30,497 nt of DNA from contig PLXC01000014.1 of NCBI GenBank assembly GCA_003151275.1, forward strand, positions 1 through 30,497. The letters are read 5' to 3'. A program made the translations under genes and the position numbers. Positions 109 through 20,839 of the stretch are shown here, piece after piece. Every line of letters starts with the position of its first letter. The stretch's first letter is position 1. This DNA comes from Candidatus Melainabacteria bacterium (GTDB taxonomy: Bacteria > Cyanobacteriota > Vampirovibrionia > Obscuribacterales > Obscuribacteraceae). The notes beneath the pieces were generated by a model. That model ran no database searches. It saw only the letters and a program-made list of their open reading frames with translations, and was not told where the DNA came from.

Positions 109-2676
109 ATGAAAGCGGTAATCATGGCTGGTGGTTCAGGAACTCGGTTGCGACCGTTGACCAGTAATTTGCCTAAGCCAATGGTGCCCGTGGCCAATAA
201 ACCGATGGCGCATCATATTGTCGAACTTCTCAAAGAGCACAATATGAAGGACATCATCTTCACTTTGTTCTACCTTCCTGATGCCATCAAGGATTATTTC
301 AGCGACGGTTCAGACTTTGGTTGCAAGATTACCTACTCGACAGAAATGGGCAGACCGCTCGGTACTGCTGGTTGCGTCAAAGCAGTTCAAGATCAACTCG
401 ATCAAACGTTCGTAGTGATCTCAGGGGACAGTCTTACCGACATTGACCTAACTGCAGCAGTCAAATTCCACAAAGAGAAAAAATCTAAAGCCACCATCGT
501 TCTTAAGCGTGTTGAAAATCCGCTCGATTACGGTGTTGTGATCACGGATGCTGAGCACCGAATTCAAAGATTCGTTGAAAAACCAGGCGCCAGCGAAATC
601 TTCTCTGACACGGTCAACACAGGCATTTATATTCTGGAACCGGAAGTTCTCCTCTACGTGATCATGGGAAGAGAGCAAGATTTTTCAAACGACCTGTTCC
701 CACTTTTGTTGCTGCGCAATGAACCACTTTTTGGATACGTAGCCGACGGCTATTGGTGCGACATCGGAAACTTGGAAGTTTATCGCCAGGCTCATCAAGA
801 TGTTCTCGACGGAAAAATGAATCTAAATTTCAAATATCCTCAAATTCAAGATCGAGTCTGGGTAGGACAAGGCACTCAAATCGATGCCACCGTTAAGTTG
901 ACGCCACCGATTGTGATTGGCGAGAATTGTCGTATCGGTCGAGAGACGGAATTGGACGCCTACACTTGCATTGGTGACAATGTCGTTGTGCAAGAAAGAG
1001 TGACGATGAAGCGACCAGTCATTTGGTCAAATGTTTACATCGGCAATCAAGCGGCTTTGCGAGCTTGTGTGATCTGCAATAACGCTACCGTTCATAATTC
1101 GGCTGAAATTTTAGAAGGCGCGATTATCGGTGCCAATTCATCGGTTGGACAAGAAGCAGTGGTCAGCCCCGATGTGCGTATTTGGCCAGATAAAAGCATC
1201 GATTCCGGAGCTCGTGTTATCTCATCCGTCATTTGGGGCACGCGTGCTCCTCGCACCTTATTTGGTGCGCATGGTGTACGCGGTCTCGCCAATGTGGAGA
1301 TCACTCCCGAGTTCGCTGTCAATCTCGCTGCCGCCTACGGCGCCACGTTGAAAGGTGGTCCAGTCCTGGTTAGTCGAGACTACTGGCGCGTTAGTCAGAT
1401 GATCAGCAGGGTCATGGTATCTGGTTTGATTTCTGTCGGAGTAGAAGTACAAAATCTTGAGTCAATGTCGCTGCCGATTTCACGGTACTACGTGAAAACG
1501 CAGAGAGCGAGCGGACTGGTTCATGTGCGAGTATCGCAGCGCGAGCCAGAAAAGGTGACGATCGAATTTTTCGATAGCGAAGGTGTGGCGATCACAAAAG
1601 CGATGGAAAGAAAAATTGAATCGACATTCTTCAAAGAAGATTTCCCGCGCGTGCAGCCGGCAGACGTCGGCAACATCGGCTTTCCGAGTCGCGTTCGTGA
1701 GTATTACATGGACGAGTTTTTGCAGCATATCAAGGGGCAGGTATTTGAGGAAGATAAAGTTCCCTTCTGCATCGTACCCGGATCGAATTACACCCGAGTC
1801 ACCAAGGCTGGTGCCCTTACGACTCAAGCGCCGAAGGTGGTTATCGACTACGCGATGGCTGAAACCGGCGTAATCCTGCCGGATTTGTTGGGACAGGTCG
1901 GCATCGAAACAGTAGTACTGAACGCGTCCATCCGCAACACGCCTCCGCGTCAAGAAGAGCGCATCGCGATGCGTAAACAGCTAGCCGATGTGGTGCGCGC
2001 CTTGAATGCCGAGCTCGGTGTTCAAATCGGTCGCAACGGCGAACAGATGACACTGGTTGACGAGACAGGACAGATCATCCGGGGCGAGCTTTTGCTGGCA
2101 GTGGTGGCAGACATTATTTTACGAGACAAACCTGGCCGCTCCATTGTTGTGCCGGTGAATGCTAGTTCTGCAATCGAGCGCATCGCGGGACGCTACAATT
2201 GCAAAGTTGTTCGTTGCAAAGCTTCCGAAACGGAAATTGGCTCAACCACAGCGAAGTTGAAAGACGCGGTGTTGGGGGGCAGTGCCAACGGTTGTTTCAT
2301 TTTTCCAGAATTCCAGAATGGATATGATGGAATGTTTGCGGTCGGACAAGTCTTAGAGCATTTGACTTATCAGGGACGCTCACTGCATCAGGCTGTTTCA
2401 GAGCTTCCTCAACTGATCTATCAAGTCGATTCAGTCCACTGTCCGTGGGAAAGAAAAGGCCGGGTGATGAGACTGCTTGTAGAAAAGCATCAGGATCGTC
2501 CTATGGAATTGCTCGATGGCGTCAAAATACAAACTCGACCAGAACATTGGATCTTGGTGCTTCCAGATGCTGTGGAACCGCTGGTGCATGTGTATGCCGA
2601 TGGGCAGGACTTGCAGCACACGTCTGCCGATTTAAATGAGTACACCCAATTAGTTCGCTATCTGCAGAACGCTTAA
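109..2676 (+). CDS. Mannose-1-phosphate guanylyltransferase-like nucleotidyltransferase fused to a degenerate phosphohexomutase domain
   Basis: Residues 1-235 are a nucleotidyltransferase with the sugar-nucleotide pyrophosphorylase loop GGSGTRLRPLT (8-18), the GDSL motif near 106 and VEKP near 156. Residues 250-375 carry left-handed beta-helix hexapeptide repeats. Residues 380-855 are a phosphoglucomutase/phosphomannomutase-like region starting with LFGAHGVRG. This order matches the long fused mannose-1-phosphate guanylyltransferases known from cyanobacteria, which would make GDP-mannose (or a related NDP-sugar) for glycans in the cytoplasm. In the mutase half the usual TASHNP phosphoserine loop reads VSQREP (475-480), and the metal loop DGDxDR is replaced by GRNGEQ (641-646), so mutase activity looks lost. 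The ATG at 109 follows an AAGAGGAA Shine-Dalgarno. Substrate identity is inferred. Confidence 0.85.
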   Translation: MKAVIMAGGSGTRLRPLTSNLPKPMVPVANKPMAHHIVELLKEHNMKDIIFTLFYLPDAIKDYFSDGSDFGCKITYSTEMGRPLGTAGCVKAVQDQLDQTFVVISGDSLTDIDLTAAVKFHKEKKSKATIVLKRVENPLDYGVVITDAEHRIQRFVEKPGASEIFSDTVNTGIYILEPEVLLYVIMGREQDFSNDLFPLLLLRNEPLFGYVADGYWCDIGNLEVYRQAHQDVLDGKMNLNFKYPQIQDRVWVGQGTQIDATVKLTPPIVIGENCRIGRETELDAYTCIGDNVVVQERVTMKRPVIWSNVYIGNQAALRACVICNNATVHNSAEILEGAIIGANSSVGQEAVVSPDVRIWPDKSIDSGARVISSVIWGTRAPRTLFGAHGVRGLANVEITPEFAVNLAAAYGATLKGGPVLVSRDYWRVSQMISRVMVSGLISVGVEVQNLESMSLPISRYYVKTQRASGLVHVRVSQREPEKVTIEFFDSEGVAITKAMERKIESTFFKEDFPRVQPADVGNIGFPSRVREYYMDEFLQHIKGQVFEEDKVPFCIVPGSNYTRVTKAGALTTQAPKVVIDYAMAETGVILPDLLGQVGIETVVLNASIRNTPPRQEERIAMRKQLADVVRALNAELGVQIGRNGEQMTLVDETGQIIRGELLLAVVADIILRDKPGRSIVVPVNASSAIERIAGRYNCKVVRCKASETEIGSTTAKLKDAVLGGSANGCFIFPEFQNGYDGMFAVGQVLEHLTYQGRSLHQAVSELPQLIYQVDSVHCPWERKGRVMRLLVEKHQDRPMELLDGVKIQTRPEHWILVLPDAVEPLVHVYADGQDLQHTSADLNEYTQLVRYLQNA

Positions 2677-6193: not shown

Positions 6194-7210
6194 CTAATAG
6201 CTCATTTTGCCCAGCTGCACTTTGCCTCTGAATATCCAGTAGACAACAGCTGTGTAACTTAGGACAAACGGCAAGCCCAGCAGCGCCACGATCAGCATTA
6301 TCCCCAATGTCTTTTGCGACGAAGCTGCGTTATAGATGTTCAGGTTAAAGGTCGGGTCTAAGCTGGACACCAGCAGGTTTGGATACATCGCCACGCCGAA
6401 CAAGAAGGTGAAGGCCGCAAGTGTGCAAATGGACGAGACAAACGCGTAACCAGGTCTATTTAAGTGAATCGCTCTCGGGATGTTGGCAATCGCTAAGACA
6501 TTTAAAACGACTACAATACTTGCCCACGGCCATCTCTTAAAGTTTGCCACCGCGTCCGGAATTTGCACAAGCGTGAAAATAGTGACCAGCATATAAAAGA
6601 GTAGGAAGACTCCAAACGTTTGCCACATCCATCCGTGTACCTTTTTCTGCAATTCGCCTTCGGTTTTTAAATACAAATAAATTGAACCATGCATTGCACA
6701 AGCTGAAACTGCAAAGCAGCCCATTAACAGTGTATACGCGTTGAAGTGATCGCGAATACGACCGTGATATTCCATGTCGGTTCCAATCGGCAATCCGATG
6801 AATAAATTTCCGACGATCACGCCAAACAGAAACGCAGCCATCGTACTTGAAAGACTGAATGAGACATCCCAAACCTGCCGCCAGAAACGGTGTTCTTTTT
6901 TGCTGCGAAACTCAATTGAAACGGCTCTGAAAATTAAGGCGCACAACAACATCATGAATAGAACATAGTAGCTGGAAAATGCCGTGGCATATGCATTGGG
7001 AAAGGCAGCGAAGAGGGCACCGCCGAAGACTACTAGCCAAACTTCATTACCATCCCAAAGGGGACCAATCGAGTTGATGATCAGGCGTCGTTCTTCATCT
7101 GTACTAGCGCGGAGGTGCAAAATGCCTACGCCAAAATCGAAGCCGTCTAAGACACCATATGCGGTGAGCAACACACCCATTAGAATAAACCAAATGTCAT
7201 TTAGGCTCAT
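6194..7210 (-). CDS. cydB: Cytochrome bd-type quinol oxidase subunit II
   Basis: This 338-residue polytopic membrane protein carries the CydB hallmarks LDGFDFGVG near residue 22 and [11 protein letters not shown] near residue 50, followed by about nine hydrophobic segments. Length is normal for the family. With CydA it forms the heme b/d quinol oxidase that reduces oxygen to water at high affinity. The start codon lies inside the end of cydA (14-bp overlap) with GGAG upstream, so the two are translationally coupled. No cydC, cydD or recognisable cydX is present in the window. Confidence 0.95.
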
Positions 7211-8675
7211 CTTTTTGCTCCACTGTTTCTTCCGAATCGGGGCGGGGCGCCAGCGCGTAAATACCTCTTTTCATGATCGCTCCAGCAAATTCCCAGAAGC
7301 TGACTCCGCCCTCCGGCACTGGAAGTTGCGCCATGATTTCTTCTAATTTTTCAGGACCCTTCTGAATTTTGTCAGTTAGAACAGTGACCCAAATCACGAA
7401 CAAAAATGAGTAGACAAAACCGAACATCAAAATCGAGGAGAGCACCATGTTGCCTGAAACAGATTTCGATACCGCATCCTTAGTGCGCAGCAGTCCATAC
7501 ACCAACCAGGGTTGCCGTCCAACTTCACAACATACCCAACCGCATTCATTAGCCGCATATCCGCCAAGAACGGCAAAGACAAACAGCCACATCAGCCACC
7601 TTTGCTCAAAAAGTGTGCCCCGCTTCCAGAAAAACAAGCCCAGAGACGTCAAACCGATGAACATCATTCCAAGTCCCACCATAATGTGGTATGACAAGAA
7701 TGGCACCACAACTGGTGGTCTGTCCGCTTTGGGGAATTTGTCTAATCCAGGCACCGGTTTGTTCAGGTCCTGATAGACCAAGAAGCTAAGCATGTCCGGA
7801 ATTGCAATGCCGAAGTTCACTACTTCGTTTTTCACGTCCGGGAGTCCGATTATGTACATGCTGGTGCCACCGGAGCCCGTTTTGAAATGCGCCTCAAGAG
7901 CCGCCAATTTAGCTGGTTGAGTCTCGGCAACCTTGTTGGCCTGGAAATGACCGGAAGCCAATTCGCCAAATGAAAATACAGCGCCATAAACCAGCGCGAT
8001 TTTAAATGTTCGTTTGGCAAAATCCAAATGTCGATTGTGCAAAATGTACCAGGCGCAAACGCTCATAGCGAAAAAGGCACCAAGAATAAATGAGGCATTC
8101 CAGACGTGAATCAATCGCGTCACGCTGGAAGGATTGAAAACCATGGCCCAGAAATCTGTGATTTCTGCCCGCGTAAAGCCTTGTGCAGTTTTTACGAGAT
8201 GATAACCGGCGGGCGTTTGTTGCCAGGAATTGGCGATCACAATCCAGACAGAAGAAAATATTGAACCAAGTGACACCATGCACGTGGCAAAATAGTGCAT
8301 TCGTGCCGAAACTTTATCCCAACCAAAGACCAGCACGGCTAAAAATCCCGATTCGAGAAAGAAAGCGAATATGCCTTCCGCGGCTAAAGCGGACCCGAAA
8401 ACGTCGCCAACGAAACGCGAGTATGTTGCCCAGTTTGTGCCAAACTGGAATTCCATGACTATCCCTGTGGCCACTCCGACGGCGAAGTTGACCGCAAACA
8501 CCTTGGTCCAAAACAGAGCCATCATCTTGTAGACGGGATTTTTGGTGCGCATGTAGGCCGTCTCGATCAGCACCATCAGCACACCAAGACCGATTGTCAG
8601 CGGTGGAAAAATGTAGTGAAACATTATTGTCAGCGCGAATTGTACGCGTGACAAAAACACAACATCAAGGTGCAT
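7197..8675 (-). CDS. cydA: Cytochrome bd-type quinol oxidase subunit I
   Basis: The protein has 492 residues. An early heme-ligand His lies in [10 protein letters not shown] (about residue 20), and [12 protein letters not shown] is the conserved CydA motif before the last helices. The periplasmic quinol loop after [16 protein letters not shown] is short, leading straight to [17 protein letters not shown], which fits the short-Q-loop class rather than the E. coli type. The ATG at 8675 is chosen because GAGGAAGG lies 6 nt upstream. A TTG five codons earlier overlaps that Shine-Dalgarno. CydA holds the hemes and oxidises quinol in the cytoplasmic membrane. The region up to 8840 is shared with a divergent response-regulator gene and should hold both promoters. 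Confidence 0.95.
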
Positions 8676-8840
8676 AGCGACCTTCCTCAATCACTTTCGT
8701 GCGCACAAACTGTAACACTATTTAGTCGTGCCTTAAATAAAACCCTGTAAGGGCAAGGCTCTCAGCTTTACATTCGATAATGCGGTTGGATTGGTAATGA
8801 TAGGGCATGGGTATGACCATTGGTGTCAAGCCAGGCTGTG

Positions 8841-9461
8841 ATGATGAACAGAATCGGCGTGTTAATAGTCGAAGATCACCAGGTCACGCTCGAGGGGCTG
8901 ACAACAGGCTTGTCGAGAGAGGCTGACATCGAAGTACTTGGGACTGCAACCACGTCTGATCAGGGTCTTGAGATGGCCGTGTCTCTGAAGCCGAATATCA
9001 TTTTGCTTGATTTGCATCTGCCTGGATCAACAGGTCCGAAAACAACCGTCAAGTCTTTTTGCAGCATTGATGGCGCTCACGTGATTGTGTTTTCAGGTGA
9101 AAATCGCATGGCGTTTATCCAGACAGTGCTCTCAATGGGCGTGGCTGGATATTTGCTCAAATCAGAAAATGTAGGCACCGTTGCTGATGCTATGCGCCAG
9201 GTGATGATCGGAAAAAAACCAGTCTTGTCGGCTGAACTCGTTTCCGGCGAAACTAAGGTAACTAGATCAGAACAAGAAGTGTTGAAAATGTTGGCGCGCG
9301 GCATGAAATATAACGAAATAGCCGAACGTAGACAAGCGTCACCGGCGACGGTGAGAAAGCAGTGTGAGTTGCTTCTTTTAAAACATGGTCTCGAGAGTCG
9401 CGAACAATTGATCGCCTGGGCAGTACAAAGTGGTTATGGGAATCTAGAGTTAGAGCCGTGA
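8841..9461 (+). CDS. NarL/FixJ-type response regulator
   Basis: The protein has 206 residues from this start. The receiver domain (about 1-125) has the acidic pair E11/D12, phospho-acceptor D57 in ILLDLHLPG, a Ser in VIVFSGE and the conserved Lys in GYLLKSEN. The C-terminus is a LuxR-type HTH (TRSEQEVLKMLARGMKYNEI through TVRKQ). It is a DNA-binding transcription factor paired with the kinase that overlaps it by 4 bp (GTGA). The start is uncertain: ATG at 8841 or 8844 fits the family best, while in-frame GTG 8823 and TTG 8820 also exist and no strong Shine-Dalgarno decides. Targets are unknown. Divergent cydAB is an obvious candidate because many such pairs respond to redox or oxygen. Confidence 0.85.
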   Translation: MMNRIGVLIVEDHQVTLEGLTTGLSREADIEVLGTATTSDQGLEMAVSLKPNIILLDLHLPGSTGPKTTVKSFCSIDGAHVIVFSGENRMAFIQTVLSMGVAGYLLKSENVGTVADAMRQVMIGKKPVLSAELVSGETKVTRSEQEVLKMLARGMKYNEIAERRQASPATVRKQCELLLLKHGLESREQLIAWAVQSGYGNLELEP

Positions 9462-10981
9462 ACCCAATTGTTGATCGAACTATTGACGAATTCCTCAAAT
9501 ATTTGAATGAGGTCATGCCTCCGCTGGTCGCCGATAAATTAGGCATAACCGAACGACTTGAGCGCGCCAGTGCCGTGAACAAGGTCGGCATAGAGTCTGG
9601 TCAATTTGGCCGTTTTAGTAACTTGCGTGAATATTCGAGCGTCGATATGGGCCGGCGTGCCCAGGCCGCTATTTATCAGTCGCTCTGGCTGCGCGAATTG
9701 GCCTACCGGATGGTGCCTGGCATCAAAGAATCAAACCCGAGCGCGGAGGAGTTCGCTGGCGAAGAAATAGAAGAAGCGACGCGGGCCCTGATGACTCTTT
9801 TGTTCGCAACCTTGAAAGGTCTGGCTCTTGAATTCAATGCCCTTGTCTCTGAAGTTCCGGCTCTGGCCCAACTGCGTTTAAGTACAACTGAAGTGAGCGA
9901 AGTTCGTGAGGATTCGGCCAATCAGGCTGTCGATTCTGATTCTGATAGAAAGCCTGTCCGAACTGGTAAGAATTCTGTCACTTATTTACGCTGCCGCGCT
10001 TCTTCGTCGACATGGAGTTTGTCAATGCGCGGAGCGCACGGACGCATTGAATTTTTTCTGGTGCCGGTGCTTGAAATATTTAAATTCTCACGTAGTGAAA
10101 CTCCAGGGCGATTGAAAAGTGTTCTTCAGATGGATGACAAAAGTGCGCCCGGAATATGGTCCATCGATTCCTTGCCCGCCGATCCCGATGAGCTTTATTA
10201 CTTGATTCGCGGCGTTTTCAAAACGTTAGTTTTTGCCTCTGCGCAGGGCTTGAAAGACGACATGATTGGACCAGCTATTTTTGAGAATTTAGAGGGGGCT
10301 GCATTACGAGCGACTGTGCGAGAGCTTTTGCTCGCCGAACAGAACATGGCTCAAAAGATTGTCAGTCAGCAAGAAGAAATTCAAAATCGCATTGCGCGCG
10401 ATTTGCATGATGCGGTGATTGCGGACATCATGACCCTAAAACGTCAACTGACCGGCGACCGTAAGTTGGACGATAGTGAGTTGATCGACGGTCTAGATCA
10501 GGTTTCCCAGAGACTGCGGGAAATATGTCATGACCTGGCTCCTCGCGATTTGATCGACTGGGGATTGAAAACAGTAATTGCCGATCTGCTGGAGCGGGTC
10601 GAGCAACGGACCGGCTGTGACTGCACTTTCGAGTGTGAACGTGATTTGCCGGAATTCCCTTACCCCGTCCAGTTGCATGTCTATAGAATCGTTCAAGAAT
10701 CACTGACAAACATTGAAAAGTATGCAGAGGCGTCGCGCATAGTCGTGAACATCGAGGTTTCCGATAACATTGCAAAATTCATCATTAGGGACAACGGCAA
10801 GGGCGTTGAGATAGGCGAAGTGGACGCTAGAAAAGCTAAAGAGGGCGGCACCGGTTTAAGTGGCACCAAAGAGCGCGCTGAAATGATTCGCTGTTACTAT
10901 CCGGCTCGGCTTAGATTTGAATCTGAACCCGGTAAAGGCTCCACGACAACGCTTGAAATGCGCTACAATGATTCAATATGA
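9458..10981 (+). CDS. Soluble HisKA_3-type sensor histidine kinase with a novel input domain
   Basis: The protein has 507 residues and a GTG start overlapping the regulator's stop. Residues 305-370 form a HisKA_3 dimerisation domain with phospho-acceptor H317 in RIARDLHDAV. Residues 405-505 form the ATPase domain with the N-box QESLTNIEKYAEA, G-box DNGKGV and GGTGLSG. This is the NarX/DegS subfamily that partners NarL-type regulators. There is no membrane segment, so it senses a cytoplasmic signal or partner. Residues about 106-262 resemble residues 116-256 of the protein encoded at 11204-12016. This region matches no sensor family I recognise (not PAS or GAF by eye). A helical linker, LLLAEQNMAQKIVSQQEE, connects it to the kinase core. 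Confidence 0.9.
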   Translation: MNPIVDRTIDEFLKYLNEVMPPLVADKLGITERLERASAVNKVGIESGQFGRFSNLREYSSVDMGRRAQAAIYQSLWLRELAYRMVPGIKESNPSAEEFAGEEIEEATRALMTLLFATLKGLALEFNALVSEVPALAQLRLSTTEVSEVREDSANQAVDSDSDRKPVRTGKNSVTYLRCRASSSTWSLSMRGAHGRIEFFLVPVLEIFKFSRSETPGRLKSVLQMDDKSAPGIWSIDSLPADPDELYYLIRGVFKTLVFASAQGLKDDMIGPAIFENLEGAALRATVRELLLAEQNMAQKIVSQQEEIQNRIARDLHDAVIADIMTLKRQLTGDRKLDDSELIDGLDQVSQRLREICHDLAPRDLIDWGLKTVIADLLERVEQRTGCDCTFECERDLPEFPYPVQLHVYRIVQESLTNIEKYAEASRIVVNIEVSDNIAKFIIRDNGKGVEIGEVDARKAKEGGTGLSGTKERAEMIRCYYPARLRFESEPGKGSTTTLEMRYNDSI

Positions 10982-11060
10982 GTGAAATCTCATATACGCA
11001 CGTGCTTGCCATTTCTTCCGCGCCTGTAAGGTTCTGACCACTACGTACACGATAAAGTGA

Positions 11061-11091
11061 AGACCAAATCGGTGATGTACAGATTGGGTCT
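11061..11091. other. Hairpin-forming inverted repeat upstream of the shared-domain protein
   Basis: AGACCAAATC (11061-11070) pairs with GATTGGGTCT (11082-11091) with one mismatch and an 11-nt loop. No T run follows, so it is more likely an operator or leader structure than a terminator. It lies between the kinase gene and the gene at 11204. Confidence 0.3.
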
Positions 11092-11203
11092 AGAAAACCA
11101 TAATAGATGAGTAGAAGAGGTGGGAGTGTTTGGCAAAGCTGAGCAGTGATCTGGCCCAGACTTGATGCGGAATTGGCTGTTGTCCAGCAAGGAGGCTTTT
11201 CTC

Positions 11204-12016
11204 ATGTGGGATAAGAAAAAGGGTGGCTCGGGTGGATCTTCAAAAGATCCAGGCAAAAGCCGCGATCCCAAAGAAACGCGCAAGTTTCTGGATAACCATC
11301 CGGCCAGACAGGGGGCTCTGCCGCGATCGGTTGATCGACAGGGCTTCGAGAACGGCGGTTTCGGGGATGTCAGCCCGGATGAGCGTGAAGCGGCGCTGTC
11401 GCAGCAGATTCTGGTATACCACGAGTCTCAAACGGCGGAGACCGGCAACGACTGGATGTACAAGCTCAAAGAAGACTCAATGCAGTATCTCGCTGAAAAA
11501 CGCGGCATCAATCTGCAGCAAATTTATCGAGAATCTATTTACAAGAAGGGCATAGAAACCCTAATCGACAAAATTTATGGCTTGTTGCAGCGCTATCAAT
11601 TTGAATTCAACCAGGTCGCTGGTGGCACCGAGCTGCACGTTTCTGGCACCATATCCGGTGACGTTACGGAAGTGACTCGATTCAACAAACTGCGCGAAGC
11701 AGAGGAAACCAAAACGTATTTCCGCGCCAGGATGTCGACACGCTCACACAGCCTCGTACTCAGGGGCAAAGATGATTGCATCGACTTTTACTTGATCCCA
11801 GTTAATAAAGTCATGGCCCTGAGTAAATCCGAAGTCGACTATCGTCCTTTGACCCGCATCCAAGTCAAGATATCCGAGCTTGGCATGATGTGGCGGATGT
11901 CTGATGGCAACCCGGCGGTGGATTCGTTGGATGAACTGTGTATGTGGCTATTTAGCGCCCTGATTCAAGTCACAAAAGAAGCCGCCAGCAAAGAAGAAGG
12001 CTCAGCTGCGGGCTAA
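11204..12016 (+). CDS. Unknown protein sharing the input domain of the adjacent histidine kinase
   Basis: The protein has 270 residues with a perfect AAGGAGG Shine-Dalgarno 8 nt before the ATG at 11204. An earlier in-frame start at 11162 is disfavoured because it would place that site inside the gene. Residues 1-50 are a charged Gly/Ser/Lys/Arg-rich tail. Residues 58-130 look helical. Residues 116-256 align by eye with kinase residues 106-262, for example FRARMSTRSHSLVLRG with LRCRASSSTWSLSMRG, DFYLIPV with EFFLVPV, and SLDELCMWLFSAL with DPDELYYLIRGVF. It has no kinase, receiver, DNA-binding or membrane segment. It may be a cytoplasmic sensor or adaptor that binds the same ligand or the kinase itself, but its function is unknown. 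Confidence 0.7.
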   Translation: MWDKKKGGSGGSSKDPGKSRDPKETRKFLDNHPARQGALPRSVDRQGFENGGFGDVSPDEREAALSQQILVYHESQTAETGNDWMYKLKEDSMQYLAEKRGINLQQIYRESIYKKGIETLIDKIYGLLQRYQFEFNQVAGGTELHVSGTISGDVTEVTRFNKLREAEETKTYFRARMSTRSHSLVLRGKDDCIDFYLIPVNKVMALSKSEVDYRPLTRIQVKISELGMMWRMSDGNPAVDSLDELCMWLFSALIQVTKEAASKEEGSAAG

Positions 12017-12446: not shown

Positions 12447-13385
12447 ATGCCCAGTTTGGAGATGTTGAAAAAACTGCTGGATGAATTTTCCGAAAAGGAG
12501 GCGCATACCCGCGAGGAAATCAATGTCATCACCGAGCAAATCGGCGAACTCGAGAAGCGCGTCTTAGCATCCCAGGTAAAACTCAGCACTGTCTCAGGCG
12601 ATCGTGAAAAAGTAAGAATGATGCAAGATCGGTATAGCGGTGGGTCCACCTTGACGTCAGGCGGTCAACTTAGCGGTCAAAACAGATCGTTGCCTGAAGA
12701 ACCAAAAGAGAAAGAGTCAAGAGCTAGACCTGGTCGCGCCGAACGAGCAGCAGCAGCAGCGGCTGCAGTGACGCCTGCTCCAGCTACTCCTCCTGCTCCC
12801 CCTCCAGCGCCCGAACCTGGCATCCCACCGGCGCCTCTGAACATGCGGGCATCCTCGACCAGATTACCGGCGGCCATACCGGCGGCCAAGCCCGTCTTAG
12901 AGACACCAGCTGAGACGTCAAGCCCGTTTTTGTCTGCTCCGGATCCTATTCCTGCTAGCCAGACGGTCTCCAATCCTTTCACCCCGGCTCAGCAGTCTCC
13001 GGCGGATCTTTTTACAGCGCCGCTACCCCAAGAGCCTGTGCCCGCGCCAGAAGTCGACGCAAACAGTGCTCAGCCTGTTGACACGACAGTGCAATCGAAT
13101 TACACGAGCTCTCAGCCAGTCGACACCGGAGCACCAACGAACGAGTCAAACAGCCCATTTTTCAGACCGACGAGTCGGCCGGATACTGCAGAGCCAACTT
13201 CTCTTCCCCAGGCAGAAGCGGTGCCGCAAACATTGATCCAACCGTCAGCGGACCCTCAACAAGCTCAGCCACAGCTAGTCTCCCAGCAAGACGATGCCTT
13301 AGCGCAGGTTCAAGACCTGGAAGAAGAAGAGCCTGACGATACTGTCAAGAGCATAAATGATGCGCTGCGTGGCTTGTTCCGTTAG
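12447..13385 (+). CDS. Coiled-coil protein with a long Pro/Ala-rich disordered region, function unknown
   Basis: The protein has 312 residues. Residues 1-60 are a heptad-patterned coiled coil (EMLKKLLDEFSEKEA then EEINVITEQIGELEKRV). Residues 75-285 are rich in Pro, Ala, Gln, Ser and Thr and probably disordered. The C-terminus is a short acidic plus helical motif (DLEEEEPDDTVKSINDALRG) that looks like an interaction tail. There is no signal peptide or membrane segment. AAGGAG lies about 10 nt upstream of the ATG. The layout of coiled coil, flexible linker and terminal helix suggests a scaffold or adaptor. It follows the two-component cluster but is separated by the repeat-filled gap, so cotranscription is uncertain. 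Confidence 0.7.
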   Translation: MPSLEMLKKLLDEFSEKEAHTREEINVITEQIGELEKRVLASQVKLSTVSGDREKVRMMQDRYSGGSTLTSGGQLSGQNRSLPEEPKEKESRARPGRAERAAAAAAAVTPAPATPPAPPPAPEPGIPPAPLNMRASSTRLPAAIPAAKPVLETPAETSSPFLSAPDPIPASQTVSNPFTPAQQSPADLFTAPLPQEPVPAPEVDANSAQPVDTTVQSNYTSSQPVDTGAPTNESNSPFFRPTSRPDTAEPTSLPQAEAVPQTLIQPSADPQQAQPQLVSQQDDALAQVQDLEEEEPDDTVKSINDALRGLFR

Positions 13386-18316: not shown

Positions 18317-19420
18317 ATGATTGAGTCAGCAGTAATCAATAGTGGACTAGAAGGTGTTGTTGTTGCAGAAACTCGAATCTCCGAAGTAGACGGTATTAGG
18401 GGAAAGCTGATTATCTGTGGACATGACTCGGAAGAGCTTGCTTTTAATTCCACTTTCGAACAGACCTGTTCATTGTTATGGACCACAGGCGGTACACAAC
18501 CGACTTCTGAGTCAGACCTGGCAAGAAAATTTGGCCAAGGAAGAGTCGAAGCTTATCAACTCCTCAAAAAATATCCATTCGTTTTGCAGCAAGCTGATCC
18601 GATGGATGCTCTGCGCAGTGCTACGAGTTTGATGTCCAGCGCCACTCAAGTCGATTGGGCTGAGTATGCAAGAATAACCGCAGCACAAGCTGTTTTTGCC
18701 GCGAACTGGTCGAGAGTTCACCGTGGTTTGGAGCTAAGTTGTCCAGATGCCAGTTTAAGTCATTCCGCTGATTTCTTGCGTTTGTTGAAGGACAAGCCTG
18801 CGTCAAAAACAGATAGCGATGCGCTTGATGTGTATTGGACAACGATTTCGGATCACGCCATGAATGCGTCTACCTTCACGGCCAGAGTGGTGGCATCGAC
18901 CGAGTCGGACAACATCAGTGCTGTTGTTGCTGCAATTGGAGCGCTCAAAGGTCCACTGCACGGTGGCGCACCAGGACCAGTGTTGGAGATGCTGAATGAA
19001 ATCGGCTCGCCTGAGAATGCGGAACGCTGGATACGCAATGCCATTGATTCCGGAAAACGAATCATGGGTATGGGACATCGAATCTACAAAGTGCGCGATC
19101 CACGCGCGGCAATCTTTGAAAAGGCAATCAGAAATTTGGAAGCGACTGGGGTGCCCGCTAGCAGACTGGCTTTGGCTCGATCGGTAGAATCGCAGGCCGA
19201 AAAGATTTTGGCTGAAAAGCATCCAGATCATCCGCTTAAAGCTAACGTCGAATTTTATACAGCAGTTCTTTTGGATACGATTCAAATTCCTGATCACTTA
19301 TTTAGCTCAATGTTTGCCGCCGGGCGAACGGGCGGCTGGCTGGCCCACGTTGCTGAACAACGCTTGCACGGAAGGCTGATTCGTCCAGCCTCTCGCTACA
19401 CCGGGGCGATGCCTCGTTGA
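18317..19420 (+). CDS. gltA: Citrate synthase (or 2-methylcitrate synthase)
   Basis: The 367-residue protein has the short dimeric-type length. Catalytic His residues are H215 in GPLHGGAPG and H254 in GMGHRIYKVRDPRA; H180 lies in SDHAMNAST, and AGRTGGWLAHVAEQ closes the site. The usual catalytic Asp of NVDFY is Glu here (E312 in ANVEFYTAVLL). Glu keeps the carboxylate, and I believe some bacterial subfamilies carry it, so the enzyme is probably active. It condenses oxaloacetate with acetyl-CoA; propionyl-CoA use cannot be excluded by eye. GAGG precedes the ATG by 5 nt. It is divergent from aceA and 189 bp before a citrate-synthase-like HTH protein. Confidence 0.88.
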   Translation: MIESAVINSGLEGVVVAETRISEVDGIRGKLIICGHDSEELAFNSTFEQTCSLLWTTGGTQPTSESDLARKFGQGRVEAYQLLKKYPFVLQQADPMDALRSATSLMSSATQVDWAEYARITAAQAVFAANWSRVHRGLELSCPDASLSHSADFLRLLKDKPASKTDSDALDVYWTTISDHAMNASTFTARVVASTESDNISAVVAAIGALKGPLHGGAPGPVLEMLNEIGSPENAERWIRNAIDSGKRIMGMGHRIYKVRDPRAAIFEKAIRNLEATGVPASRLALARSVESQAEKILAEKHPDHPLKANVEFYTAVLLDTIQIPDHLFSSMFAAGRTGGWLAHVAEQRLHGRLIRPASRYTGAMPR

Positions 19421-19446
19421 GCAGTGAGCGATGTATATGGAACAAA

Positions 19447-19583
19447 GGATTCGGACTGGGATCCAAGCGGGGATTCGGACTGGGATCCACCAAGGATCCA
19501 GACTGGGATCCACCAATGATCCAGACTGGGATCCACCGAAAGATCAAGACTTGGAGCCAACCAAGGATCCAACCAAGGATCGT
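19447..19583 (+). repeat. 23-24-bp tandem repeat between the two citrate-synthase genes
   Basis: About five to six copies share the pattern GGATYCRGACTGGGATCCAC (starts 19447, 19471, 19494, 19518, 19542), decaying toward the right. GGATCC recurs in each. Copies abut with no spacers, so this is not a CRISPR array. Several frames are open through it because of its period. It ends 27 bp before the TTG start of the next gene. Confidence 0.75.
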
Positions 19584-19609
19584 GACCTGGAATTAAACGA
19601 GGATTTGCC

Positions 19610-20839
19610 TTGTCTGATGACGACGAAAAATATTTCAACGGAGCGCAAGCGGCCGAATTTCTGGGAGTGAAATCAGCCACTCTGTATGCATACGCAAGTC
19701 GAGGCATGATCGAAAGTATTCCCACGGAAAGCGGGCGAGAGCGCGCCTATCGGCTCAGCGATCTGATCAAGCTGCGGCAATCTTCGCGTGGTTTCAAAAG
19801 TCCAAAAGATCAGGAAGTTCCAACCTGGACGGGACCCGTGATCAAGTCAGCGATAACAGAAATTCGTAACGATGGGCACCGCTATCGTGGACAAAATGCG
19901 ATCGATTTAGCCCGGCAAGGGCAGCCATTCGAATTAGTCGCTGAGCTGCTTTGGGAGACAAATGCCAGCCAAAAAGATTGGCAAATGACGAAACCACTGC
20001 CACTACCAAAACATATTAAGAATTTGGCCTCTGCAGAAGTTGACTACTTAGATCTATTGAAGGTTTTGATTGCTTCGGTCGAAATTTCTGATCCTGTGAC
20101 AAGAAAGCTTTTGGCGGATGACATCTTCGGAACTGCCAGACGTCTGATCATTACAATGGCTCTTACACCTGGTCTTAACGAAACGAAAGAGGGGTACATT
20201 TCGGATGTGCAATATCCGATTGCCCAAACTTTGCTTGCTTCACTGCACGCAACGCGCTCGCGAGAAAAAGCGGCATTAGTTAATTCGGCGCTCGTGCTGT
20301 GTGCGGATCACGAGTTAAACGCATCCGCCCTGGCAGCCCGTGTAGCTGCATCCTGTGACGCCTCATTGTACTCGTCTCTCCTCAGCGCGGTTGGTACATT
20401 CAGCGGCAGTCTGCATGGCTTGGCGAGCCGCAGAACTGAAAACATCGTTAGCACATCAATGAAATTTAGAAGCACGAACGCCTGGTTAAAAGACTACCTG
20501 AAGCACAGCGAGCGAATTGCCGGCTTCGGCACTGAGTTATATGAACAGGGCGATCCGCGCGCTAAATTCTTGCTGGAAGCGGCCCAGTCGATCTCAAGCA
20601 AAAATGCCAATTTAAATCGCTTATTGGAAATTGTCCAATGCGTAGGAGAGCAGATTGGCACCAAGCCTAACCTCGATATTGGTTTAGCTGCCATCACATA
20701 CGCCTTATCACTGCCACCGGGATCTGGCTCGACATTGTTTGCAGTAAGCAGAACGGCAGGCTGGATTGCCCATGCCGTCGAGCAACGTGCTTACGGCGGA
20801 TTGATCCGTCCGCGTGCCAGATACATCGGAAAAGTTTAG
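19610..20839 (+). CDS. MerR-type HTH domain fused to a degenerate citrate synthase domain
   Basis: The protein has 409 residues. Residues 6-58 form a MerR/excisionase-like winged HTH (AAEFLGVKSATLYAYASRG then RAYRLSDLIKL). Residues 70-409 follow the citrate synthase fold and end in AVSRTAGWIAHAVEQ. H269 is kept (SLHGLAS) and D356 is kept (NLDIG), but the His of GHRxYK is Thr (T308 in GFGTELYEQGDPRA). Catalysis is therefore doubtful, and a ligand-sensing role is likely. Such HTH-citrate synthase fusions are known in other bacteria. The TTG start is forced by an in-frame stop at 19583-19585 and is supported by GAGGA 6 nt upstream. It may regulate the adjacent aceA/gltA genes. Confidence 0.82.
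   Translation: MSDDDEKYFNGAQAAEFLGVKSATLYAYASRGMIESIPTESGRERAYRLSDLIKLRQSSRGFKSPKDQEVPTWTGPVIKSAITEIRNDGHRYRGQNAIDLARQGQPFELVAELLWETNASQKDWQMTKPLPLPKHIKNLASAEVDYLDLLKVLIASVEISDPVTRKLLADDIFGTARRLIITMALTPGLNETKEGYISDVQYPIAQTLLASLHATRSREKAALVNSALVLCADHELNASALAARVAASCDASLYSSLLSAVGTFSGSLHGLASRRTENIVSTSMKFRSTNAWLKDYLKHSERIAGFGTELYEQGDPRAKFLLEAAQSISSKNANLNRLLEIVQCVGEQIGTKPNLDIGLAAITYALSLPPGSGSTLFAVSRTAGWIAHAVEQRAYGGLIRPRARYIGKV

What the first reader, a model, noticed from the sequence alone, without database searches (positions are those of the whole stretch)
9458..12016. An unrecognised sensor-type domain shared by a histidine kinase and the neighbouring stand-alone protein
Kinase residues about 106-262 and residues about 116-256 of the protein at 11204-12016 align along their length. 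Shared blocks are a helix ending LEFN/FEFN, LRCRASSSTWSLSMRG/FRARMSTRSHSLVLRG, EFFLVPV/DFYLIPV and DELYYLIRGVF/DELCMWLFSAL. I recognise no PAS, GAF or other known input domain. A kinase with this domain plus a free copy next door suggests either ligand competition or direct domain-domain regulation, a three-part signalling system with the NarL-type regulator.
Basis: partly seen in the sequence, partly recalled or inferred. Interest (0 to 1): 0.75.

Follow-up and report, generated by a model that had tools for sequence, protein, structure and literature searches.

The report
Undescribed domain beside bacterial kinases
In a group of non-photosynthetic relatives of cyanobacteria, a signalling kinase and the small protein encoded next to it share a protein domain found in no family library we searched, and the pairing of the two genes recurs in distant members of the group, which points to a three-protein switch whose signal is still unknown.

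Summary
Confirmed and extended. The kinase (9458-10981) and its neighbour (11204-12016) share a ~150-residue domain (BLASTP E 1e-10; profile-profile probability 98.85). No Pfam or NCBIfam family fits it, no PDB fold matches significantly, and predicted elements run in the same order in both. The family is lineage-expanded: 4-11 ORFs in each of 14 genomes, 53 of 382 genomes sampled from the class, but only the query genome among 386 sampled from the phylum. The 26 kinase copies form one clade. Regulator-kinase-free order holds for the 13 of 79 kinase hits most like the window's, free copy downstream on the same strand, in several gene neighbourhoods. Unexpected: long members of the family often abut Ser/Thr kinases (21 of 36); 26 of 26 mapped kinases lack the Gln of the HisKA_3 phosphatase motif. 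Best reading, inferred: the free protein modulates the kinase by domain-domain pairing.

The parts
8844..9461 (+). NarL-type response regulator (receiver + LuxR/GerE DNA-binding domain)
   Evidence: Pfam Response_reg E 8.2e-15, GerE E 8.2e-7; directly upstream of 23 of 26 domain-bearing kinases mapped
9458..10981 (+). soluble histidine kinase with the undescribed N-terminal domain
   Evidence: HATPase_c E 1.3e-10; highest 19-residue hydropathy 1.43; GTG start overlapping the regulator stop by 4 nt
9752..10243 (+). the shared domain in the kinase, residues about 99-262
10295..10531 (+). predicted dimerisation/phosphoacceptor helices of the kinase; His317 in RDLHDAVIAD, Ala322 where HisKA_3 kinases carry Gln
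   Evidence: predicted helices 281-332 and 339-358; motif counts
10670..10963 (+). ATP-binding (HATPase_c) domain of the kinase
   Evidence: Pfam; Foldseek hits to VraS and DesK
10982..11203 (.). 222-nt gap between kinase and free gene
   Evidence: aligned among five relatives, no clear regulatory site found
11204..12016 (+). free-standing protein with the same domain
   Evidence: AAGGAGG just upstream
11204..11437 (+). low-confidence, probably flexible N-terminal tail of the free protein
   Evidence: pLDDT 40-51 in blocks of ten residues
11450..11503 (+). helix with the DWMxxLK motif, residues 83-100
11525..11980 (+). the shared domain in the free protein, residues about 108-259 (helix, four strands, short helices, two strands, helix)
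   Evidence: pLDDT 85-98 in blocks of ten residues; family profile
12447..13385 (+). conserved downstream neighbour: protein without a family match, read as coiled coil plus proline-rich stretch
   Evidence: downstream of the free gene in 17 of 19 mapped loci without the kinase and in window, L001, L002, L004, L115; no family above cut-off
7197..8690 (-). cytochrome bd oxidase subunit I gene (cydA), divergent from the regulator; subunit II gene (cydB) at 6194-7210
   Evidence: Pfam PF01654 E 4.8e-164 and PF02322 E 1.3e-101; same arrangement in window, L001, L002, L004

Best explanation
The three genes encode one soluble signalling switch. The NarL-type regulator and the kinase form a two-component pair; the undescribed domain is the kinase's N-terminal control module, placed ahead of the helix that leads into the phosphoacceptor bundle. 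The free protein carries the same domain and most likely pairs with the kinase's copy (domain-domain contact), raising or lowering autophosphorylation. SHOWN: shared domain, conserved gene order, single kinase clade, phosphoacceptor and ATP-binding motifs present, phosphatase Gln absent. INFERRED: that the domains bind each other, the sign of the effect, and the signal. A role in sensing respiratory or redox state is a guess from the divergent cydAB genes in the window's own lineage.
For: Shared domain. Regulator-kinase-free order in 13 of the 13 kinases most like the window's, free copy downstream on the same strand, although flanking genes differ between lineages: cydAB and acyl-CoA genes, FAD oxidoreductase with SLH domain, patatin, Ser/Thr kinase, class I tRNA synthetase. 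Three of these loci (L107, L111, L112) carry an extra free copy directly upstream of the regulator, and two (L111, L112) a second one downstream. All 26 kinase domains in the tree form one clade, SH-aLRT 99. In 14 sets, distances of the free domain track those of the kinase domain (r 0.91; partial r given the regulator 0.42, against 0.20 for the kinase's catalytic part; weak). No likely membrane-spanning stretch in the window kinase.
Against: Only 4 of 29 close orthologues of the free protein have an adjacent kinase, so it can be kept without one; G044 has a close free copy and no kinase hit at E <= 1e-20 (that genome may be incomplete). Diverged kinases with the domain have no free neighbour. 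G033 has a regulator beside a free copy with no kinase between (L123). In L109 a 144-aa ORF lies between kinase and free gene. No complex could be modelled here. The distance test is small and open to saturation effects, and the free domain correlates with the regulator as well as with the kinase domain before correction (r 0.93 and 0.91).
Confidence: 0.45

Rival explanations
1. The free protein is an independent adaptor or scaffold of the same domain family, kept beside the two-component pair because the regulator controls its expression or because both serve the same process, without direct contact with the kinase.
For: The free gene stands without an adjacent kinase in 25 of 29 genomes with a close orthologue. 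In the 19 of these 25 loci that were mapped it keeps its own neighbours: a nucleotidyltransferase/phosphomannomutase gene upstream (19 of 19; in two with a Ser/Thr-kinase-like gene between) and the gene like window 12447-13385 downstream (17 of 19). A 0.13-1.2 kb gap separates kinase and free gene, so a separate promoter is possible.
Against: Does not by itself explain why the same domain is fused to the neighbouring kinase, nor why the trio persists when other neighbours change.
Confidence: 0.28
2. The domain binds a small ligand; the free copy is a sink or carrier that competes with, or hands ligand to, the kinase.
For: One domain in a kinase input position and free next to it; a compact mixed helix-sheet fold is predicted.
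Against: Across 52 diverse members only one column (a Trp in the last strand, W230 of the free protein) reaches 90% conservation and none is invariant, which argues against one common ligand; no fold match to a ligand-binding domain is significant.
Confidence: 0.12
3. The free protein takes over dephosphorylation of the regulator (auxiliary phosphatase), because the kinase lacks the phosphatase Gln.
For: At the Gln position of HisKA_3 DxxxQ, 26 of 26 kinases with mapped domains carry Ala, Ser or Gly; that Gln is reported as needed for phosphatase activity in NarX (passages of PMC3510030 and PMC5231405).
Against: No auxiliary-phosphatase family matches the free protein. Mapped kinases without a free neighbour lack the Gln too. 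One of 26 rows of alignment A4 does have Gln.
Confidence: 0.06
4. The neighbourhood is an accident: two paralogues next to each other after tandem duplication, without functional link.
For: Paralogy is certain, and the family is expanded in these genomes. The extra free copies upstream of the regulator in L107, L111 and L112, with L070, are the rows nearest to the kinase clade (30 rows, SH-aLRT 97), so an old local duplication may lie behind the fusion.
Against: The downstream free copies are far from the kinase clade, so their pairing is no recent duplication; 13 of the 13 most similar kinases keep it across different neighbourhoods.
Confidence: 0.04

Closest known systems
NarL/DesK-type two-component systems (HisKA_3 histidine kinase plus LuxR-type regulator)
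   Same: HATPase_c domain, RDLHD phosphoacceptor motif, NarL-type regulator in an overlapping upstream gene; Foldseek finds VraS and DesK as closest solved kinases
   Different: undescribed soluble N-terminal domain, a free copy of that domain encoded downstream, and no Gln in the phosphatase motif
Chemotaxis auxiliary phosphatases (CheX, CheC, CheZ)
   Same: a separate protein acting on a two-component pathway whose kinase lacks the phosphatase Gln is conceivable
   Different: no sequence match to such a family; the free protein shares its domain with the kinase, which those do not (recalled)
Actin capping protein CapZ alpha (fold resemblance only)
YbjN / type III secretion chaperone-like folds
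   Different: weaker than CapZ; strand count and connections seem to differ (recalled topology)

Membership tests
HisKA_3 two-component histidine kinase | HATPase_c ATP-binding domain | tested here: met
   Pfam PF02518 E 1.3e-10, above cut-off
HisKA_3 two-component histidine kinase | HisKA_3 phosphoacceptor domain above the curated cut-off | tested here: inconclusive
   21.3 bits against a cut-off of 24; His and Asp of LHD present in 26 of 26 rows of A4; one relative, P0138, carries a precomputed PF07730 label
HisKA_3 two-component histidine kinase | DxxxQ phosphatase motif | tested here: not met
   Gln position is A, S or G in 26 of 26 mapped kinases, the window's included; 1 of 26 rows of A4 has Q
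NarL/FixJ response regulator | receiver domain followed by LuxR-type HTH | tested here: met
   PF00072 and PF00196 above cut-off
known input domains in Pfam (PAS, GAF and others) | Pfam match in the shared domain | tested here: not met
   none for either window copy; 52 members scanned, 10 unrelated families with one member each, best E 0.0082
curated NCBI protein families | NCBIfam match in the shared domain | tested here: not met
   three short free-type proteins: 0 families; hits of the three kinases scanned lie mainly in the kinase half
CapZ alpha | same fold at a score above the noise line | tested here: inconclusive
YbjN / type III secretion chaperone fold | same fold at a score above the noise line | tested here: inconclusive
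CheX/CheC/CheZ auxiliary phosphatases | sequence match of the free protein | tested here: not met
   0 Pfam families at E <= 1, 0 NCBIfam families at E <= 0.01
CheX/CheC/CheZ auxiliary phosphatases | dephosphorylation of the regulator | not testable with these tools
   needs biochemistry

The most novel reading that the evidence does not exclude
The domain is a lineage-specific kinase-companion module that serves both histidine kinases (fused in cis and supplied in trans) and Ser/Thr kinases (as long flexible-tailed partners or substrates encoded back to back with them), wiring the two phosphorylation networks of these bacteria, which have 52-113 Ser/Thr kinase domains in each of five larger genomes counted, through one interaction code.
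Probability: 0.2. Interest if true: 0.75.

Novelty: new variant of a known kind. Interest (0 to 1): 0.55.

Why it matters
Two-component input is usually read from known modules. Here an undescribed soluble domain family, expanded within one bacterial lineage, was fused to a histidine kinase apparently once and has been kept with a free copy beside it in distant relatives. It gives annotators a definable new family for 'hypothetical proteins' in these genomes, and it makes a clear experiment possible: whether a free copy of a kinase's own control domain tunes that kinase. If the link to Ser/Thr kinases also holds, it would join two signalling networks through one module.

Tried and rejected

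Regulatory site: alignment of the kinase-free and cydA-regulator gaps of five relatives showed conserved blocks in the close four but, by eye, no convincing inverted repeat; promoter and terminator scans were at shuffle level (6 found against 4.3, 4 against 4.0).

Relatives outside the lineage: none in a phylum sample of 386 beyond the query genome. Source names seen are Obscuribacterales, Obscuribacter, Melainabacteria, Drouetiella, 'bacterium', 'soil metagenome', or 'Planktothrix sp.' and 'Oculatellaceae cyanobacterium' on assemblies marked MAG; I suspect the last two labels are misassignments but did not prove it.

Literature: searches of the held library for Obscuribacter + histidine kinase (1 paper), Obscuribacterales (33 papers, 20 listings seen), Melainabacteria + two-component + domain of unknown function (0), accessory or stand-alone kinase partners (2 listings), and cytochrome bd + NarL terms (5 listings) showed no listing that describes this domain; none of those papers was opened, and subscription papers are not held. 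PMC3510030 and PMC5231405 were seen as passages only.

Counting caveats. One search gives 4-13 matches per genome; two of the 13 in G002 are second pieces of an ORF already counted, hence 4-11 ORFs. In one search at most 9 candidates per genome were scored, so copies are undercounted there. For one search I kept 79 of the 135 kinase matches (E <= 1.5e-43; the 56 weaker ones match from the phosphoacceptor region on) and 34 of 96 matches plus 39 of 64 as free-type; weaker ones, many in long ORFs, were left out. Not all 79 kinase hits were shown to carry the domain; 26 kinase ORFs (window included) were. The 13 kinases with a free neighbour are the top of a ranking by similarity to the window's kinase family, not a random sample; of all 79, some of them fragments, 15 have a free copy within 5 kb. 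In one search my motif script picked a wrong site for L107, L111 and L112; their true motif (Ser at the Gln position) is read, giving 14 A, 8 S and 4 G of 26. In one search, nine loci that duplicate others and domain hits under 110 residues were dropped before the tree. The tree is a quick one with 39 of 132 inner branches open and many long ends; only the kinase clade (99) and the 30-row group around it (97) are used. In one search short loci and contig ends were removed by the flank rule (36 of 44 long, 46 of 69 short and 18 of 25 kinase ORFs kept); long ORFs of one subfamily are syntenic and not independent, and the Ser/Thr kinase check was made after seeing the pattern. A permutation figure (0 of 2000) ignores relatedness and is not used.
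Full report
WHAT IS THERE. The window holds a response regulator (8844-9461), a histidine kinase (9458-10981, overlapping the regulator by 4 nt) and, after 222 nt, a 270-residue protein (11204-12016), all on the + strand. The regulator has receiver and LuxR-type domains; the kinase has HATPase_c and a sub-threshold HisKA_3 match; the free protein has no Pfam match.

THE SHARED DOMAIN IS REAL. Full-length BLASTP gives E 1e-10. Profiles of 46 free and 17 kinase relatives align at probability 98.85 and E 4.2e-17, kinase 109-270 to free 118-266. HMMs made from either side find the other. AlphaFold2 predicts, for the free protein (pLDDT 85-98 in blocks of ten across the domain): helix 104-139, strands 147-160, 166-178, 182-189, 192-199, short helices, strands 217-224, 227-232, helix 242-269. 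The kinase model, of lower quality (mean pLDDT 70, pTM 0.38), has the same order: helix 102-130, strands 142-152, 173-182, 186-193, 196-203, helix 204-211, strands 219-225, 234-236, 239-241, helix 243-263, then the phosphoacceptor helices.

HOW WIDE THE FAMILY IS. Protein searches return 122 free-type, 26 kinase-type and 141 domain-profile hits (one listed); informative source names are Obscuribacterales-type apart from two metagenome assemblies labelled with photosynthetic cyanobacterial names. Fourteen genomes found through the free gene hold 4-11 distinct ORFs each (4-13 matches). Of 382 genomes sampled from the class, 53 have the domain; of 386 sampled from the phylum, only the query's own genome. 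The 139 domain copies put into a tree are kinases (26), short or free proteins (69) and long proteins (44) with the domain in the N-terminal part; the long ones read carry a stretch rich in Pro, Gln, Glu, Ser or Ala of variable length and mostly end in a helix-rich segment (by eye). All kinase copies form one clade (SH-aLRT 99), and the three labels need 4 changes on the tree against a mean of 58 in shuffles. The rows nearest to the kinase clade are the free copies that lie upstream of the regulator in L107, L111 and L112, and L070 (30 rows together, 97), so an old local duplication may lie behind the fusion; the downstream free copies are far from it.

THE THREE-GENE SET IS CONSERVED. Across the 53 genomes, 79 kinase hits (E <= 1.5e-43, of 135) were checked against 73 free-type hits. 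The 13 best-scoring kinases all have a free copy downstream on the same strand; of the other 66 hits, 2 have one nearby, both contig-end fragments in one genome. Reading the loci confirms regulator, kinase, free copy in that order in all 13 and the window, kinase-free gap 0.13-1.2 kb (in L109 with a 144-aa ORF between); three loci have an extra free copy upstream of the regulator, two of them a further one downstream. The surroundings differ: cydAB plus HMGL-like and enoyl-CoA hydratase genes (window, L001, L002, L004; L115 shares the downstream genes and is cut at the contig end before cydAB), FAD-dependent oxidoreductase with SLH domain (L105, L106), patatin (L108, L109, L110), Ser/Thr kinase (L113), class I tRNA synthetase (L112) (flanks of L107 and L111 were not scanned). 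A unit kept while its neighbours change argues for a functional link. The regulator lies directly upstream of 23 of 26 domain-bearing kinases; in L117 it lies downstream, in L118 1.9 kb upstream, and L104 starts at a contig end.

BUT THE FREE PROTEIN DOES NOT NEED THE KINASE NEXT DOOR. Of 29 close orthologues (E <= 1e-96), 4 have an adjacent kinase. In 19 of the other 25, mapped, the free gene follows the nucleotidyltransferase/phosphomannomutase gene that opens the window (19 of 19; in L136 and L138 with a Ser/Thr-kinase-like gene between) and in 17 precedes a relative of window 12447-13385; L006 ends at the contig end and L122 shows no match. In window, L001 and L002 the regulator, kinase, cydAB and three more ORFs stand between that upstream gene and the free gene. 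Since distant branches also have the set, I favour ancient pairing with later loss of the kinase at this locus, but re-joining is not excluded: G119 has regulator and kinase on one contig (L116) and the free gene on another (L120).

MECHANISM. The window kinase looks soluble by hydropathy (maximum 1.43 over 19 residues; 1 of 26 kinases exceeds 1.6) and has the phosphoacceptor and ATP-binding motifs; closest solved kinases are VraS and DesK. The new domain sits where an input module would, ahead of the helix into the phosphoacceptor bundle. All 26 mapped kinases lack Gln at the phosphatase position (14 A, 8 S, 4 G; in alignment A4 of 26 relatives one has Gln); two papers describe that Gln as required in NarX and placed for water activation in DesK (passages of PMC3510030, and PMC5231405). 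Loss of that Gln predicts weak phosphatase activity, so control of kinase activity itself may matter more. Domain-domain pairing between kinase and free copy is the simplest way in which a shared domain in neighbouring genes could work. In 14 sets the free domain's distances correlate with those of the kinase domain at r 0.91, but also with the regulator's at 0.93 and the catalytic part's at 0.90; given the regulator, partial r is 0.42 with the kinase domain and 0.20 with the catalytic part, which is weak support. The signal is unknown.

AN UNEXPECTED LINK. Twenty-one of 36 long ORFs with enough flank have a Ser/Thr kinase ORF within 1.5 kb, in all 21 at 84 bp or less, against 1 of 18 kinase and 3 of 46 short ORFs. 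Five larger genomes of this group hold 52-113 such kinase domains and two others 11 each, so chance neighbours exist, but the arrangement is largely fixed within subfamilies: convergent in one, divergent in another (L086 differs), co-directional in L089/L091 and L085. One long subfamily (10 loci) has no such neighbour and sits by formiminotransferase, transporter and peptidase genes instead; several single long ORFs (L080, L082, L092, L093, L096, L099) have none either. The pattern was noticed after the fact and represents about four independent placements.

VERDICT. Observation confirmed; family undescribed in the libraries and paper listings searched; three-part system supported by gene conservation; mode of action inferred.

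Noticed in passing
long-class domain ORFs among L045-L099 (listed): A third class of the family, about 350-1450 residues with a low-complexity stretch, often lies within 100 bp of a Ser/Thr kinase gene (21 of 36 with enough flank).
   Followed up: partly
window 12447-13385: Protein without a family match directly downstream of the free gene in 17 of 19 mapped kinase-less loci; its ORF length varies widely between genomes.
   Followed up: partly
window 6194-8690: cydB and cydA run divergently from the response regulator in window, L001, L002 and L004, a possible target of the regulator.
   Followed up: partly
genomes G001, G002, G004, G006, G014: 52-113 Ser/Thr protein kinase domains per genome, against 11 each in G138 and G039.
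   Followed up: no
L107, L111, L112: One kinase with two or three free copies of the domain around it; the upstream copies are the closest non-kinase rows to the kinase clade.
   Followed up: partly
L123 (G033): Response regulator directly followed by a free copy with no kinase between them; a kinase hit lies on another contig.
   Followed up: no
window 18317-20839: Two citrate synthase-type genes side by side, the second with N-terminal helix-turn-helix matches below the curated cut-offs.
   Followed up: no
window 109-2676: Fused nucleotidyltransferase and phosphoglucomutase/phosphomannomutase protein, the usual left neighbour of the free gene in kinase-less loci.
   Followed up: partly
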